Origin: a virus | DNA length: 40,084 nt | Virus record (IMG/VR): IMGVR_UViG_3300045108_000001 | Location: 1 to 40,084 of that record | Direction: 5' to 3' (one strand) | Shown here: positions 1-18,399 of the stretch, piece by piece | Layout of the letters: every line of letters starts with the position of its first letter | Numbering within the stretch: position 1 is the first letter of the stretch | Notes under the pieces: model-generated | What the model saw: the letters and a program-made list of their open reading frames with translations, nothing else | The model's database searches: none | Told to the model about the DNA's origin: nothing | Made by a program: the position numbers and the translations under genes

Positions 1-903
1 TCCGGAACCTTGAAGATCGGCGACATGACCTTCCCGTGCGCCGTGCTCACAGAAACTAACGGCAAGGTTACCCGCGTACTCACTCAGCACGACTTCATGA
101 AGGGCATGGGGATGTACTACAGCGGCTGGATTTCGAAAAACCGGGCGGTCGATGAAGCCACTGCAGAAGTACCTCTTTTTCTCGCCTTCGAAAGGCTTAA
201 GCCATTCATCGACAAGCATTTAGGCGATCTGCAGTCAATCGTCCTGAAGTACCGCACGCAGAACGGGAATCTGGCTTACGGTATTAAGGCGGACATCATT
301 CCGAAAATATGCGAAGTTTGGATGGATGCCGAGGAGCACGGGCGCCTCGGTAGGCGGCAGAAAGCCATCGCGCGAAAGGCCCATCTCATGATCCGTGCAC
401 TTGCGCACGTTGGGATCGCCGCTCTGGTTGATGAGGCGACCGGATATCAGGAGAGGCGGGCCCATGACGCTCTAGCGCGAATCCTCGAAGAGTTCGTGAC
501 GACCGAGTTGCAGAAGTGGGTAAGCACGTTTCCGATTGACTACTACCGGGAGGTCTGCCGACTGCGAGGCTGGAAATTTGATCCGGGTACGACAAAGCGC
601 GGCGTTATTTGGGGCGTCCTGACGAACAACGTGATTTATCAACGGCTGGCACCCGGCGTTCTAGAGGAGTTGAAGCGGGTAACGCCGAGAGATGAAAAGG
701 GGCGCCATAAAGACAAGCTCTTTCAGCGCCTCACAAGGGACACCGGCAATCCACGCCTCCGCGAGCATCTTGCTTCGGTCGTGACGCTCATGCGGGTTGC
801 GTCTGATGGTGACTGGAAGGGTTTCATGAAGATGCTGGACAAGGCGCTACCGAAGTATCGGGTGGGGCCACAACAGCTCCAGCTGGAAGGATTCGAAGAG
901 TGA
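1..903 (+). CDS. P63C-domain protein, 5' end cut by window edge
   Basis: The reading frame is open from base 1, so the gene begins before the window; the TTG at 10 is probably internal because the frame upstream (S-G-T) continues the sequence. The protein matches the P63C domain family by its central ALVDEATGYQERR motif (about residues 135-147 from the TTG), a hallmark I recognise from phage and plasmid proteins of about 300 residues. The molecular function of the family is unknown to me. It stands alone on the plus strand and ends just before a hairpin at 939-957. If the window ends are joined, a GTG at 40079 lies in the same frame and would be a natural start (see findings). Confidence 0.75.
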   Translation, partial: SGTLKIGDMTFPCAVLTETNGKVTRVLTQHDFMKGMGMYYSGWISKNRAVDEATAEVPLFLAFERLKPFIDKHLGDLQSIVLKYRTQNGNLAYGIKADIIPKICEVWMDAEEHGRLGRRQKAIARKAHLMIRALAHVGIAALVDEATGYQERRAHDALARILEEFVTTELQKWVSTFPIDYYREVCRLRGWKFDPGTTKRGVIWGVLTNNVIYQRLAPGVLEELKRVTPRDEKGRHKDKLFQRLTRDTGNPRLREHLASVVTLMRVASDGDWKGFMKMLDKALPKYRVGPQQLQLEGFEE

Positions 904-12018: not shown

Positions 12019-12711
12019 ATGACCGCACAGGTGACAGCTACTCTGCCGACGACGTTCGGGAAAAACACTGGCGGCACTACGCCATTCGCCGTTGACACCA
12101 TTACCGAGTTCACCGCCAGCAACGGCGTCACTATCGATAAGGCGCTCACGGCTTCAGGTGGTCTGACAACGACCACGCTCGCGACGACCGGCGCATACAC
12201 GCCAACGGGCGGCGTGGCGGCGGCTGGCGGATTTACGGTCGCGCCGCGCGGCCTGCACACGGGCGGTATCACCGCCACGCAGACGACGGACGGCAATGAC
12301 ACGACGCCTGCAACAACGGAAACATACATCGCGGAGATCATCGTCCCCGCGAATATGACGATCACCGGTATTGCGTTTTTCAACGGCTCCGCAGTGGGCA
12401 CTGACAAGCTGGTAGGTATCCTCTTCAACTCCTCGGGAGTTGTCGTTGCGAACACTGCCCTTGCTGGCACCACGGCTACCGGCACTGACGCATTCCAGAA
12501 GATCGACCTTGCCGCGACGTACGCGGCGAAGGGTCCCGCAACGTACTACGTCGGACTTCAAGTCAACGGCACGACATACCGATTCAACTCGCACATTCTC
12601 GGTGTGTTCGGCGCGTCCAAGAAGACCGGCGAGACGTTCGGGACGCCGACGACGATTACGGCGCCTACTACGTTCACCACCGCACAGGGGCCGATCGCGA
12701 GTCTGTACTAG
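12019..12711 (+). CDS. virion surface/decoration protein candidate, 230 aa
   Basis: A Thr/Ala/Gly-rich protein with a folded beta-type C-terminal half (about 95-215): ETYIAEIIVPANMTITGIAF, then GTDKLVGILFNSSGVVVANT and YYVGLQVNGTTYRF. I recognise this arrangement as a recurrent jelly-roll-like phage protein found next to capsid or tail genes. Good Shine-Dalgarno (GAGGGGG). The Thr-rich N-terminal third contains no obvious fold. Likely exposed on the virion; exact location is inference. Confidence 0.55.
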   Translation: MTAQVTATLPTTFGKNTGGTTPFAVDTITEFTASNGVTIDKALTASGGLTTTTLATTGAYTPTGGVAAAGGFTVAPRGLHTGGITATQTTDGNDTTPATTETYIAEIIVPANMTITGIAFFNGSAVGTDKLVGILFNSSGVVVANTALAGTTATGTDAFQKIDLAATYAAKGPATYYVGLQVNGTTYRFNSHILGVFGASKKTGETFGTPTTITAPTTFTTAQGPIASLY

Positions 12712-14217: not shown

Positions 14218-14826
14218 ATGCACTACATCCTCAAGCGCGCGTCTGTGCCGGAGCTCTACAACGCTAGAGCGCAGCGGTACCGCCTTCTGTCGGCGCCGCG
14301 CGTGAAGCGCTGCGGAACCTGCACGTTCGAGGTGCCGGAGGGTGACATCGTTTTAGAGGATGGCGCCGAGCGCTGTCCGATGTGCAAAGACGTACTGACG
14401 GCTGAATGGAAATCCAACGAAGAGCGAGATGTCGCAGCCGTGAAGTCTGCCGCATGGCGTGCGCTCTATCAGCCGCCGCAGTTCTCGGTTCGCGCGCTAC
14501 AAGAGGCGCGGCCGGGCGTTGTCACGGCGATCAACGACGCGAACGGGCACGCCGTCTACTCCAGCTCACCACTCACGCAGAGAATCGGCGACGCGCCCGC
14601 GACCACGCCACCATCAGCGTTTCCGGATACCGTGCTGACGTTGGTCGGTCAGCGCTTCCTCGCTACGGACGTCGTCACGCTACCAACCGGATACTCCAAC
14701 CTTCACACCGTCATCACGTCAACGGCGATTGAACTATCGATCTACCCGAACACCGCGACAGTCGGGCGATACTCCTTGCAGTTCAATGGGCATGTGTTCC
14801 GCGACATCCTCGCGGCCATCAATTAA
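14218..14826 (+). CDS. zinc-ribbon protein of head region, 202 aa
   Basis: ATG at 14218 (MHYILKRASVPELYNARAQR); the frame upstream of it is the terminator. A four-Cys zinc site CGTC...CPMC lies at about residues 32-60. A helical middle follows, then a beta-type C-terminal part (DTVLTLVGQRFLATDVVTLP to GRYSLQFNGHVFRDI). No family is recognised. Position after the capsid gene suggests a minor head or head-completion protein. Confidence 0.6.
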   Translation: MHYILKRASVPELYNARAQRYRLLSAPRVKRCGTCTFEVPEGDIVLEDGAERCPMCKDVLTAEWKSNEERDVAAVKSAAWRALYQPPQFSVRALQEARPGVVTAINDANGHAVYSSSPLTQRIGDAPATTPPSAFPDTVLTLVGQRFLATDVVTLPTGYSNLHTVITSTAIELSIYPNTATVGRYSLQFNGHVFRDILAAIN

Positions 14827-15020: not shown

Positions 15021-15869
15021 ATGGCGATCATGACGCGTGTAGTTGCGGGACAGCGGCAGAACGAGGCAGCAACTTCGTTCGGCAGTGAGAATATCGCCGC
15101 GTACGAACAGCGCAAGGGCTATCGGGACATGGGCGTTGTGTGGGTCATGCCATCACGCGGTCTGATCCCTACCAGCGTGTTCGTGTCGCTGTTCGCCTTG
15201 CAGTGGCCGATGAATCAATTCCGGACCAACGCTCTGGTAGCTGAATCGATGGAAGTCGGCGCCGCATACAACACGCTCGTGTCAATGGTGCTCGATCGTA
15301 AGCAGCTCATCGAAACGTTCGGGCAAGAGTACGGCGAGGCGGCGCACCGCGCGCCGTTCATCCTTACGACGGAGGAAGACAACCTCCCGCCGTGGGACGC
15401 CGTCCTGAAGCTCTTTGCTGGTATCTACAAGTGTCCAGACTGCGGCGCCGAAGTGGGAACAACGAAAGAGGCGCTAGCCCGGTGGGAGTGCGCGAAGGGG
15501 CACCGGGGCTTTGACGCTGTGTCTGGACTTTACTTCGTCAAAACCGATCCGCCGATTCCACAGGCGTGGGGCCAGCCGAAGAAGCGCAGTAAGAAGTTCG
15601 ACTTCGCGCCCGTCTCAGTCGCCAACGCGATTGAGAAAGGCGCGACGATCGAAGTGAATGGGATTGGCATGGGTTGCGCGTTGTGGCGCAAGGACATCTT
15701 TCGCAAGCTGCCGAACACAGAAGCTAACCCGTGGTTCGAAACGCCGGTAGGCGGAACGCAGGATTTGCGTTTCTGTAAGCGGGCGAAGATCGAAGCGGGC
15801 GCACGGTTCGGCGTAGACTGTAGCATCCATGTCGGGCACCTGAACACGACCACGATGCAGATGTACTAA
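15021..15869 (+). CDS. predicted GT-A glycosyltransferase with inserted zinc ribbon
   Basis: 282 residues. The N-terminal half resembles GT-A transferases (YRDMGVVWVMPSRGLIPTSV, then PFILTTEEDNLPP at about 112-124, where EEDN replaces the usual DXD metal site). A zinc ribbon CPDCG...CAKGH is inserted at about 139-160. The C-terminal part has the acceptor-side pattern GIGMGCALWRKDIF, PWFETP, TQDLRFCKRA and the closing VDCSIHVGHLN. Such enzymes move a sugar from a nucleotide-sugar to an acceptor. Lying among virion genes, it may glycosylate a capsid or decoration protein, or host surface sugars; substrate is unknown. Confidence 0.6.
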   Translation: MAIMTRVVAGQRQNEAATSFGSENIAAYEQRKGYRDMGVVWVMPSRGLIPTSVFVSLFALQWPMNQFRTNALVAESMEVGAAYNTLVSMVLDRKQLIETFGQEYGEAAHRAPFILTTEEDNLPPWDAVLKLFAGIYKCPDCGAEVGTTKEALARWECAKGHRGFDAVSGLYFVKTDPPIPQAWGQPKKRSKKFDFAPVSVANAIEKGATIEVNGIGMGCALWRKDIFRKLPNTEANPWFETPVGGTQDLRFCKRAKIEAGARFGVDCSIHVGHLNTTTMQMY

Positions 15870-15886: not shown

Positions 15887-16267
15887 ATGGGAAGCAGCGC
15901 ATTTAATCTGAACCTCTCCGCCGACTGGGGGATGTTCATCAACTCCGGACTCGGGTCGGCCGATCTTCCGCAGAACAACCGTACCGGCAACGGATACGCG
16001 CTCTATAACCCAACTACCGCCAAGATGCTCACGCTTACGCCAGTCGGCGGAGTGGCGATGCCAGCGGAAGCGCGGCACGCGCTCATTGCCGTAACAACTA
16101 ACCCGATCCGGTTTCGCACTGACGGGACCGACCCGACCGGCGCAGCGGGACTCATTCTACCAACCGGCTTTTGGGTGTTCGAGAATCAACGCGCGATGCT
16201 GGAACAGTTCCGGTTCATTGACAGTTCGGCAGGCGCTTCCGAAGTTACCGTGATGTACGCGTGGTGA
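15887..16267 (+). CDS. small beta-rich virion protein candidate, 126 aa
   Basis: A 126-residue protein with the stretch ITTNPIRFRTDGTDPTG-like (about 68-84) and LPTGFWVFENQRAMLEQF, a layout I recognise from small phage structural proteins that sit near capsid or tail genes. GGGAGGG Shine-Dalgarno. It is probably a virion component; the precise role is unknown. Confidence 0.5.
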   Translation: MGSSAFNLNLSADWGMFINSGLGSADLPQNNRTGNGYALYNPTTAKMLTLTPVGGVAMPAEARHALIAVTTNPIRFRTDGTDPTGAAGLILPTGFWVFENQRAMLEQFRFIDSSAGASEVTVMYAW

Positions 16268-16277
16268 GGTGAGATAG

Positions 16278-16940
16278 ATGGCAGGTATTAGCGGCAGTCC
16301 ATCTGGCGGAACCGGCAATGCGGTTGGCGCGGCGTCGTCAACCGACAATGCCATTGTGCGCTTCGACGGCACGACTGGTAAGACACTTCAGAATTCCGTC
16401 GTGACGATCACGGATGTCGGCGGCGTCGTGCTCCCGACAACTGGCGCTTTTCAGCAGACGATTAGCGGCGTCGCGAATCAGTTCACCGGCTCAGCCACCG
16501 GCCCGCAGATCGCCGCCAACTATGGCGACGGCAATGTATCGCTGGCGTTTGATCTCAGCGGCCTATCGGTGGGTGCGAATACGCTCATCCCGCCCGCAAC
16601 TGGCACGCAACTCGTATCGACGTCCAGCACCGCTACTCTGACAAACAAAAAGATCAAGTCGCCAGTACGCGCGCTGACGGCCAACGCGACCCTGGCGATC
16701 ACCGACGAGATTGTTACGATCGACGCCACGTCCGGCAACGTCACCTTAACCCTACCCGCCGCCTCGACCGCCATCGGCCTGTCGTTCCGCATTAAGCGGC
16801 TCGATGGTTCGGGCAACACAGTAACAATCGCGCGAGCTGGCTCCGACACCATCGACGGCGCGACGTCCGCGACGCTAACCGCTCAGTACCAAGCGCGCGA
16901 CATCAGCGGGCTCACCAGCAGCACGTGGGGGCTCTTCTAA
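16278..16940 (+). CDS. tail fibre/whisker-like protein, 220 aa
   Basis: Gly/Ser/Thr-rich. It contains DNAIVRFDGTTGKTLQNS (about 23-40) and TLTNKKI, both frequent in phage fibre shafts, and a C-terminal beta-type part (SGNVTLTLPAASTAIGLSFR, NTVTIARAGSDTI). These support a fibrous, trimeric virion protein. At 220 residues it is short for a receptor-binding fibre; it could be a head fibre or collar whisker. It overlaps the next gene (TAATG). Confidence 0.55.
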   Translation: MAGISGSPSGGTGNAVGAASSTDNAIVRFDGTTGKTLQNSVVTITDVGGVVLPTTGAFQQTISGVANQFTGSATGPQIAANYGDGNVSLAFDLSGLSVGANTLIPPATGTQLVSTSSTATLTNKKIKSPVRALTANATLAITDEIVTIDATSGNVTLTLPAASTAIGLSFRIKRLDGSGNTVTIARAGSDTIDGATSATLTAQYQARDISGLTSSTWGLF

Positions 16941-17293
16941 TGGCATACGAACCGCGCGCCAAAGTGGACCTTTCTGGCCAAACCGCGTCCATCGGAACGA
17001 CAACAATCACAACGGCGCCAGCGGCTGGACTCTACCGCATCACATATTACGTCGGCACAACTACGGCTGGATCAGCTGGCACCGTGCTTATGACGCTCGC
17101 ATGGAATGATGGAGTCGCGCAGTCGCTCGCGACGTCCGCGATCAGCCTCGCCACTATAGTGGCTGGCACGCTCGCGCAAGGCAGTGTCGCCATCATGTGC
17201 GCAGCCGGTCAGGCTATCACGTATGCCACGACCGTGGCGGGCGTGATCGGCAACCCGCAATACTCACTCACAATCCGACTGGAGGCGCTGTGA
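16940..17293 (+). CDS. small beta-type virion protein candidate, 117 aa
   Basis: ATG at 16940 overlaps the preceding stop. The product is a Thr/Ala/Gly-rich beta protein (ASIGTTTITTAPAAGLYRIT, then SVAIMCAAGQAITYATTVAG). Similar short proteins are common beside phage fibre genes (from memory). It ends in a GTGA overlap with the next gene. Confidence 0.5.
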   Translation: MAYEPRAKVDLSGQTASIGTTTITTAPAAGLYRITYYVGTTTAGSAGTVLMTLAWNDGVAQSLATSAISLATIVAGTLAQGSVAIMCAAGQAITYATTVAGVIGNPQYSLTIRLEAL

Positions 17294-17655: not shown

Positions 17656-18399
17656 ATGGCATGGACTGAGGTAGATTCCGCCGTCACCTCGCCCGCGGAA
17701 ACCGGGCTTAGCGCCACGGTTATGACGGCGGACGTCATCCGTAACTGCAACAACCTGCCACCTCAGCATCCGCATTACTCGTCAGTCCTGAAGTACATCA
17801 ACGAAGCGAAAGACGAGTTCATGACGCTGATGGTGTCCTCACATCGCGGGCTGTTGTCGCTGATGCCGCGCCTTCAAAACTGGCGCTGGTATGACGTCAC
17901 GGTTGACGGCCAAGGCTACCTCGTTCTCCCGAGTACGATGCTGACGTTCGAGTCAGCATCGTACTCAAAGCTTACGACGGCGTACGTGCCCGGCACGACG
18001 ACCGAATACCCGATGTTCCCCGAGGCGGACCCGGTCCTCTTCGGGCAGTTCACCAAAACAACCACGGGCTGGCCTGTGCGCTACCGTCGCAACGGGTCGC
18101 GCATCGACCTTTGGCCTACGCCTGACAGTTCTCCTACAAACTACCTCACCCAAGTTGTCATCCGAGGCACGCGCAAAGAGGACGACATTAGCACTACCGG
18201 CACGTACAAGATGGACGCGAAGCTGCACGCGTTCGTGGTAGAGCTGGCGACGGCGATCACCATGGAAAAGATGGGGTGGGAGGAAGCACCGCTGCGGCGC
18301 GCGAGCGTCGAGCGGCGACTGTCCCGCTACATGAATGTCTCGGCCACCGAACAGGGCCGCACGATGATCCGCACAACCATCGCGGGGCTCCCGACTTAG
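17656..18399 (+). CDS. head-tail adaptor/tail factor candidate, 247 aa
   Basis: A helical N-terminal half (KYINEAKDEFMTLMVSS...) is followed by WRWYDVTVDGQGYLVLPSTM and WPVRYRRNGSRIDLWPTPDS, then a helical C-terminus. This layout and the position just before the large nozzle candidate resemble the gatekeeper/adaptor proteins of podoviruses (P22 gp4, T7 gp11 type), which attach beneath the portal. The match is by pattern and context, so treat as a candidate. Confidence 0.5.
   Translation: MAWTEVDSAVTSPAETGLSATVMTADVIRNCNNLPPQHPHYSSVLKYINEAKDEFMTLMVSSHRGLLSLMPRLQNWRWYDVTVDGQGYLVLPSTMLTFESASYSKLTTAYVPGTTTEYPMFPEADPVLFGQFTKTTTGWPVRYRRNGSRIDLWPTPDSSPTNYLTQVVIRGTRKEDDISTTGTYKMDAKLHAFVVELATAITMEKMGWEEAPLRRASVERRLSRYMNVSATEQGRTMIRTTIAGLPT

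What the first reader, a model, noticed from the sequence alone, without database searches (positions are those of the whole stretch)
15021..15869. Glycosyltransferase with inserted zinc ribbon inside the capsid cassette
A GT-A-like enzyme (PFILTTEEDNLPP, GIGMGCALWRKDIF, VDCSIHVGHLN) is interrupted by CPDCG...CAKGH and is translationally coupled to a 52-aa protein. It sits between capsid and fibre genes rather than in an accessory region. It could decorate the virion itself, for instance the Thr/Ser-rich proteins at 12019 and 16278, which would be a little-described system of phage virion glycosylation.
Basis: partly seen in the sequence, partly recalled or inferred. Interest (0 to 1): 0.65.

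Follow-up and report, generated by a model that had tools for sequence, protein, structure and literature searches.

The report
Zinc-ribbon glycosyltransferase in phage head operon
This phage carries, in the middle of its particle-building genes, a genuine sugar-attaching enzyme with a small zinc-binding insert; its relatives sit in a recurrent fibre protein - sugar transferase - methyltransferase gene set, so the phage probably coats part of its own particle with sugar.

Summary
Window 15021-15869 encodes a 282-aa GT-A glycosyltransferase: the AlphaFold model has pLDDT 94, and its best PDB match is the viral glycosyltransferase STIV A197. The four GT-A core motifs are all but invariant in 80 relatives, and selection on the gene is strongly purifying. 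A C-x2-C...C-x3-H ribbon is inserted after the DxD helix. It occurs in one clade only (8 of the 80 aligned relatives, support 1.0). That clade tracks one phage lineage: ten of eleven loci carrying its capsid protein also carry this enzyme; the eleventh has a different GT-A plus a methyltransferase in the same slot. The larger ribbon-less family (about 500 loci in IMG/VR) is usually flanked by a Ser/Thr/Gly-rich repeat protein upstream and a SAM methyltransferase downstream, in phages and in Patescibacteria-type MAGs. Three ribbon-bearing phages keep the methyltransferase; the window does not. The coupled 52-aa protein is not a conserved partner. Modification of a virion surface protein is the best explanation, but no acceptor, donor or zinc has been shown. 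Virion glycosylation by phage enzymes is already known in mycobacteriophages; the proven enzyme Che8 gp110 is not detectably related to this one. I rate it a new variant of a known kind.

The parts
15021..15869 (+). GT-A glycosyltransferase, 282 aa
   Evidence: AF2 pLDDT 94.1 / pTM 0.90; Foldseek best PDB hit STIV A197 2C0N E 8e-9; PHROG 12406 glycosyltransferase E 1.8e-4
15372..15380 (+). DxD-equivalent motif E118-x-D120 (followed by N121)
   Evidence: E and D in 80/80, N in 79/80 of alignment A5
15432..15503 (+). zinc-ribbon insertion C138-x2-C141 ... C157-x3-H161
   Evidence: only in a monophyletic clade (support 1.0); ligands invariant in all its members
15660..15674 (+). G-loop GIGMG (214-218)
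   Evidence: G214 79/80, G218 80/80
15756..15764 (+). xED-equivalent T246-Q247-D248, putative catalytic base D248
   Evidence: Q247 and D248 80/80
15837..15839 (+). C-terminal His (H273) of the VGH motif, putative metal ligand
   Evidence: 80/80; C-His of the GT-A core as defined in PMC7185993
14862..15020 (+). 52-aa ORF abutting the GT; not a conserved partner
14218..14826 (+). protein with a separate C-x2-C...C-x2-C ribbon, directly after the capsid gene; found in all nine ribbon-GT loci analysed
   Evidence: not found in the available part of L142
13230..14174 (+). major capsid protein (314 aa, weak hits to head-protein families)
   Evidence: PHROG 133 E 2e-5, Pfam Mu-like gpT E 0.03; position and conservation
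15887..16267 (+). 126-aa structural-type protein downstream, candidate acceptor
   Evidence: conserved in most ribbon-GT loci
16278..16940 (+). Ser/Thr-rich (27%) fibre-like protein, candidate acceptor; a homologue lies two genes upstream of the GT in L133 and in L135
12019..12711 (+). Thr/Ser-rich protein, weaker candidate acceptor
   Evidence: no hit in L133/L135; low-confidence all-beta model
17656..18399 (+). SU10-type head-tail adaptor, right boundary of the module
   Evidence: Pfam PF24175 E 6e-7, above cut-off

Best explanation
The gene encodes a metal-dependent GT-A glycosyltransferase, probably inverting, made with the head and neck proteins. It transfers a sugar from a host nucleotide-sugar to a protein of the virion surface, most likely the Ser/Thr-rich fibre or decoration protein encoded one or two genes away, or else the capsid lattice. 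E118/D120 and H273 would hold the metal and nucleotide-sugar, the G-loop the donor, and D248 would act as base. The zinc ribbon, inserted after the DxD helix in one phage lineage, most likely serves as a rigid docking surface for that lineage's own acceptor or partner, for example the capsid-adjacent ribbon protein at 14218-14826. Shown here: predicted fold, motif conservation, purifying selection, core-gene behaviour, linkage to fibre and methyltransferase genes in relatives. Inferred: activity, timing, donor, acceptor, zinc binding, ribbon function.
For: Fold and motifs. dN/dS 0.03-0.08, close to that of the capsid gene. The gene lies downstream of the capsid gene in every one of the nine ribbon-GT loci analysed, over portal identities from 82% down to 32%. 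Ten of eleven contigs with this capsid lineage carry it; the eleventh has a different GT-A plus methyltransferase in that slot. In the ribbon-less phage family, clustering found the methyltransferase in 84 and the repeat protein in 80 of 96 loci; at 70% dereplication, methyltransferase at +1/+2 in 39 of 46 and repeat protein at -1 to -3 in 34 of 46. In MAG loci the repeat protein lies within about 3 kb upstream in 21 of 26 and the methyltransferase within 2.5 kb downstream in 23 of 26. L132, L133 and L135 join ribbon GT and that methyltransferase, with an ATGA overlap in L132. Wanda gp15, a homologue by profile comparison, follows the major capsid gene directly; ctKR88's homologue lies in a GT/methyltransferase cluster between capsid and tail genes. 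No thymidylate-synthase-type DNA-modification gene in six genomes.
Against: No direct evidence of glycosylated virions. The family also occurs in MAGs assigned to bacteria, so it is not tied to virions only; there the linked repeat protein may be a cell-surface protein. The window lacks the methyltransferase. No sequence relation to the proven capsid glycosyltransferase Che8 gp110. TM-scores to solved structures are only moderate (0.47/0.67 for A197).
Confidence: 0.55

Rival explanations
1. The enzyme modifies a host envelope glycan (capsule, LPS or teichoic acid) late in infection, to block superinfection or free progeny, and its place among structural genes only sets expression time.
For: Part of the Foldseek list is envelope-glycan enzymes (TarP, RmlT); related genes occur in bacterial MAGs; S-TIM5's relative lies among non-structural genes.
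Against: Near-strict co-occurrence with one capsid lineage and replacement in the same slot; linkage to a Ser/Thr-rich repeat protein and a methyltransferase in phages and MAGs alike.
Confidence: 0.13
2. It glycosylates a modified base in phage DNA (DNA hypermodification).
For: Phage glycosyltransferases are known to act on DNA; a TET-associated GT is a weak structural neighbour (rank 49).
Against: No thymidylate-synthase-type gene in six genomes; no other base-modification gene among the window ORFs scanned; best structural relatives are protein-glycosylating or virion-associated enzymes.
Confidence: 0.05
3. The protein is a structural or assembly factor that uses a GT-A scaffold without catalysis, with the ribbon as interaction domain.
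For: Core gene of the head module in one lineage; the classic DxD is E-x-D.
Against: All four catalytic/metal positions invariant or nearly so in 80 sequences, which a non-catalytic scaffold would not need; replaced in L142 by another GT-A with a canonical DDD motif.
Confidence: 0.07
4. It acts on a virion protein, but that protein is the capsid subunit itself (a glycan shield as in mycobacteriophages) and not a fibre or decoration protein.
For: Closest genetic linkage in the lineage is with the capsid gene; Wanda gp15 follows its capsid gene; STIV A197 is proposed to act on the STIV coat protein (PMC10551542).
Against: In the ribbon-less family the conserved neighbour is the repeat protein.
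Confidence: 0.2

Closest known systems
STIV A197 (PDB 2C0N), viral GT-A glycosyltransferase proposed to glycosylate the STIV major coat protein
   Same: Best PDB structural match (E 8e-9, TM 0.67 on the target); compact viral GT-A with DxD, Asp base and metal site (PMC4187194)
   Different: 14% identity; archaeal virus; acceptor of A197 also unproven (PMC10551542); reported to have no additional domains, so no ribbon
Mycobacteriophage Wanda gp15 / PHROG 12406 glycosyltransferase
   Same: Homologous by profile comparison (probability 98%); directly after the major capsid gene, in a GT/kinase/methyltransferase cluster
   Different: No ribbon; 28% identity over the C-terminal part only
Mycobacteriophage capsid/tail-tube glycosylation (Che8 gp110, Corndog gp38, Myrna; Freeman et al. 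2023, read only through papers citing it)
   Same: Phage-encoded glycosyltransferase that modifies virion proteins (PMC12363180)
   Different: Che8 gp110 and gp109 show no detectable sequence relation to this family; in Che8 the genes lie near the genome's right end, not beside the capsid gene
Podovirus ctKR88 'has synthase' and its roughly 500 IMG/VR relatives
   Same: Same GT-A family, all core motifs aligned
   Different: No zinc ribbon; usually flanked by repeat protein and methyltransferase

Membership tests
GT-A fold glycosyltransferases (core as in Taujale et al. 2020, PMC7185993) | GT-A (Rossmann-like) fold | tested here: met
   AF2 pLDDT 94.1; Foldseek E 8e-9 to STIV A197 and 1e-6 to LH3/COLGALT1
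GT-A fold glycosyltransferases | DxD metal/donor motif | tested here: met
   E118-x-D120, both invariant in 80/80; first acid is Glu, a variant of the motif
GT-A fold glycosyltransferases | xED catalytic-base motif | tested here: met
   T246-Q247-D248 at the start of a helix; D248 80/80; the Glu is replaced by Gln
GT-A fold glycosyltransferases | G-loop glycine and C-terminal His | tested here: met
   G214 79/80, G218 and H273 80/80
GT-A fold glycosyltransferases | sugar transfer from a nucleotide-sugar | not testable with these tools
   needs protein and assay
PHROG 12406 (Wanda gp15-type) glycosyltransferase | profile match over the full length | tested here: inconclusive
   E 1.8e-4 over residues 161-276 only; 98% probability by profile comparison
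Proven mycobacteriophage capsid glycosyltransferases (Che8 gp110 type) | sequence homology to Che8 gp110 | tested here: not met
   hhalign probability 1.5%
Proven phage virion glycosylation | glycan on virion proteins | not testable with these tools
   needs virion proteomics
Zinc ribbon | two knuckles with four Cys/His ligands | tested here: met
   CPDC ... C-x3-H conserved in all ribbon-bearing loci; high-confidence region of the model
Zinc ribbon | binds zinc | not testable with these tools
   needs metal analysis; only weak Pfam matches (zf-tcix E 0.05)
DNA-hypermodification glycosyltransferase system | accompanying base-synthesis gene (thymidylate-synthase homologue) | tested here: not met
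   0 of 6 records, some possibly incomplete; the control rang in 9 of 14 reference genomes

The most novel reading that the evidence does not exclude
A widespread, undescribed surface-fibre glycosylation cassette (Ser/Thr/Gly/Asn-rich repeat fibre - GT-A - SAM methyltransferase), shared by uncultivated tailed phages and Patescibacteria-type genomes, puts O-methylated sugars on the linked fibre. In this phage lineage the cassette has moved into the head operon, lost the methyltransferase in the window's subgroup, and gained a zinc ribbon that redirects the enzyme to a lineage-specific virion protein.
Probability: 0.35. Interest if true: 0.7.

Novelty: new variant of a known kind. Interest (0 to 1): 0.5.

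Why it matters
In the papers I could read, phage virion glycosylation is demonstrated for a few mycobacteriophages, with an enzyme not detectably related to this one where tested (Che8). A conserved fibre-GT-methyltransferase cassette in hundreds of uncultivated phages, and in bacterial MAGs, would mean that sugar-coated fibres are common, with consequences for adsorption and recognition. The ribbon insertion offers a natural comparison of how a phage GT-A picks its protein acceptor.

Tried and rejected
Pfam did not recognise the protein or most members; only weak Glycos_transf_2 hits. PDB sequence search: only chance-level hits. The 52-aa ORF as a dedicated partner: rejected. Thr/Ser-rich protein 12019 as obligate acceptor: rejected; its structure model is low confidence (pLDDT 42), so no fold search was run on it. 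DNA hypermodification: no supporting genes. Homology to Che8 gp109/gp110: none. Corndog and Myrna could not be fetched by the accessions tried. Genome scan for ribbon-bearing relatives: none found. The primary paper (Freeman 2023) is not held. PHROG scan of more distant neighbours of the ribbon-less family gave a mix of virion and endonuclease families, not informative.

Full report
OBSERVATION. Its codon usage matches the structural genes. Its nearest relatives in IMG/VR are 77% identical and sit in the same gene order: capsid, ribbon protein, 52-aa ORF, GT, 126-aa protein. Pairwise dN/dS is 0.08 against L001 and 0.03 between near relatives of the L051 group, close to the values of the capsid gene. 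It is a gene under constraint.

WHAT THE ENZYME IS. PHROG 12406 (glycosyltransferase) matches residues 161-276 at E 1.8e-4. An alignment of 80 members gives an AlphaFold model with pLDDT 94.1 and pTM 0.90. Foldseek against the PDB puts STIV A197, a viral GT-A enzyme, first (E 8e-9), then other glycosyltransferases including collagen-hydroxylysine enzymes COLGALT1/LH3. Against viral models, uncultured Caudovirales proteins, several named GT-A, come first. The four conserved features of the GT-A core, as defined in PMC7185993, are present and nearly invariant in all 80 sequences: E118-x-D120, G214/G218, D248, H273.

THE RIBBON. Aligned with the podovirus ctKR88 protein, the window's enzyme has an extra stretch between the helix after the DxD motif and the next core strand. 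Loop lengths are cleanly bimodal: 42-47 residues in 8 sequences, 21-27 in 72. All 8 carry C-x2-C...C-x3-H with all four ligands conserved despite a 5-residue length change. With gap-rich columns, the ribbon included, removed, these sequences form one clade with support 1.0, which fits a single gain. Zinc binding is inferred, not shown. Its function is unknown; a docking role is my inference.

A CORE GENE OF ONE PHAGE LINEAGE. Nine ribbon-bearing loci were compared gene by gene with the window. All keep the GT between the capsid gene and the SU10-type adaptor, over portal identities of 82% to 32% (adaptor by Pfam PF24175). A search with the capsid protein found eleven contigs; ten are ribbon-GT carriers already in hand. 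The eleventh, L142, has the same genes up to the capsid (75% identity). It then has a 199-aa protein, a different GT-A (LDDDQ...GAGCML...GDDL...VGH) and a methyltransferase overlapping the GT by one base. A GT thus appears to be kept in that slot even when the enzyme is exchanged. L142 ends 2 kb after the capsid gene, so a second GT further on cannot be excluded.

THE WIDER FAMILY. About 500 relatives exist in IMG/VR, nearly all ribbon-less among those fetched. Among 96 ribbon-less loci, clustering found a SAM methyltransferase in 84, usually the very next gene, and a Ser/Thr/Asn/Gly-rich repeat protein in 80, usually just upstream (Pfam Methyltransf_11). After dereplication at 70% identity the figures are 39 of 46 (methyltransferase at +1/+2) and 34 of 46 (repeat protein at -1 to -3). 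Thirty-two loci in bacterial MAGs, many of them Patescibacteria, were found. Of the 26 with a recognisable GT ORF, 21 have the same repeat-protein family within about 3 kb upstream, and 23 have the methyltransferase within 2.5 kb downstream; one lies on a 1.16-Mb Saccharibacteria contig beside a UvrA-like gene, by my reading of the sequence. Three ribbon-bearing phages (L132, L133, L135) still have the methyltransferase next to the GT, with an ATGA overlap in L132. L133 and L135 also have a homologue of the Ser/Thr-rich 16278 protein two genes upstream of the GT. The window lacks the methyltransferase.

THE 52-AA PARTNER. It abuts the GT (TAA-ATG) in the window and is adjacent in L001/L002. 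In L131 its homologue lies about 3.5 kb upstream, and in L132 the ribbon protein and the GT leave no room for it. In L133 and L135 the GT start overlaps the stop of a different upstream gene. Close spacing belongs to this operon in general, not to this pair.

MECHANISM AND ACCEPTOR. The best-supported explanation is glycosylation of a virion surface protein from a host nucleotide-sugar. The fibre/decoration proteins near the GT are the best candidates, then the capsid protein; protein 12019 is less likely, since it was not found in two ribbon-bearing genomes. The ribbon protein at 14218-14826 co-occurs with the ribbon GT in all nine loci and was not found in the available part of L142, so it is a further candidate acceptor or partner. 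Donor, linkage and acceptor are not shown. DNA hypermodification lacks its companion gene, and host-surface modification fits the capsid co-inheritance poorly.

RELATION TO KNOWN SYSTEMS. Capsid and tail-tube glycosylation by phage enzymes is reported for Che8, Corndog and Myrna (Freeman et al. 2023, not held; described in PMC12363180, and PMC11256854). Che8 gp110 is not detectably homologous to this family. Wanda gp15, directly after its capsid gene, is homologous. STIV A197 is the closest solved structure and is itself proposed, unproven, to act on a coat protein (PMC10551542). I found no held paper on a phage GT-A enzyme with a zinc ribbon (one unrelated paper). The ribbon insertion and the fibre-GT-methyltransferase cassette appear undescribed in what I could search, but the kind of system is known.

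LIMITS. All ribbon carriers are metagenomic contigs without known hosts. Neighbour clustering used simple longest-ORF calling and permissive BLAST linkage, which may over-merge low-complexity repeat proteins. MAG contigs may include viral sequence.

Noticed in passing
L155 3040-7306 and other loci L153-L178: The repeat protein - GT-A - SAM methyltransferase gene set occurs in MAGs of Patescibacteria and others, once on a 1.16-Mb Saccharibacteria contig near a UvrA-like gene, so it may also serve cell-surface proteins.
   Followed up: partly
L142 8071-9908: Close relative of the window whose post-capsid slot holds a different GT-A plus methyltransferase, an apparent exchange of the glycosyltransferase in place.
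   Followed up: partly
window 14218-14826: A second, separate CxxC...CxxC ribbon protein directly after the capsid gene, found in every ribbon-GT locus analysed.
   Followed up: partly
L005 5749-6474 and L142 8680-9369: PHROG 1574, listed as unknown function, matches Wanda gp15 (E 2e-7) and the L142 GT-A (E 3e-15): probably a glycosyltransferase family.
   Followed up: no
window 16946-17290: Weak match to the BclA C-terminal domain (Pfam PF18573, E 7e-4, below cut-off) in a protein just after the fibre gene.
   Followed up: no
window 10-903: P63C-domain protein at the left end of the contig (E 8e-30).
   Followed up: no
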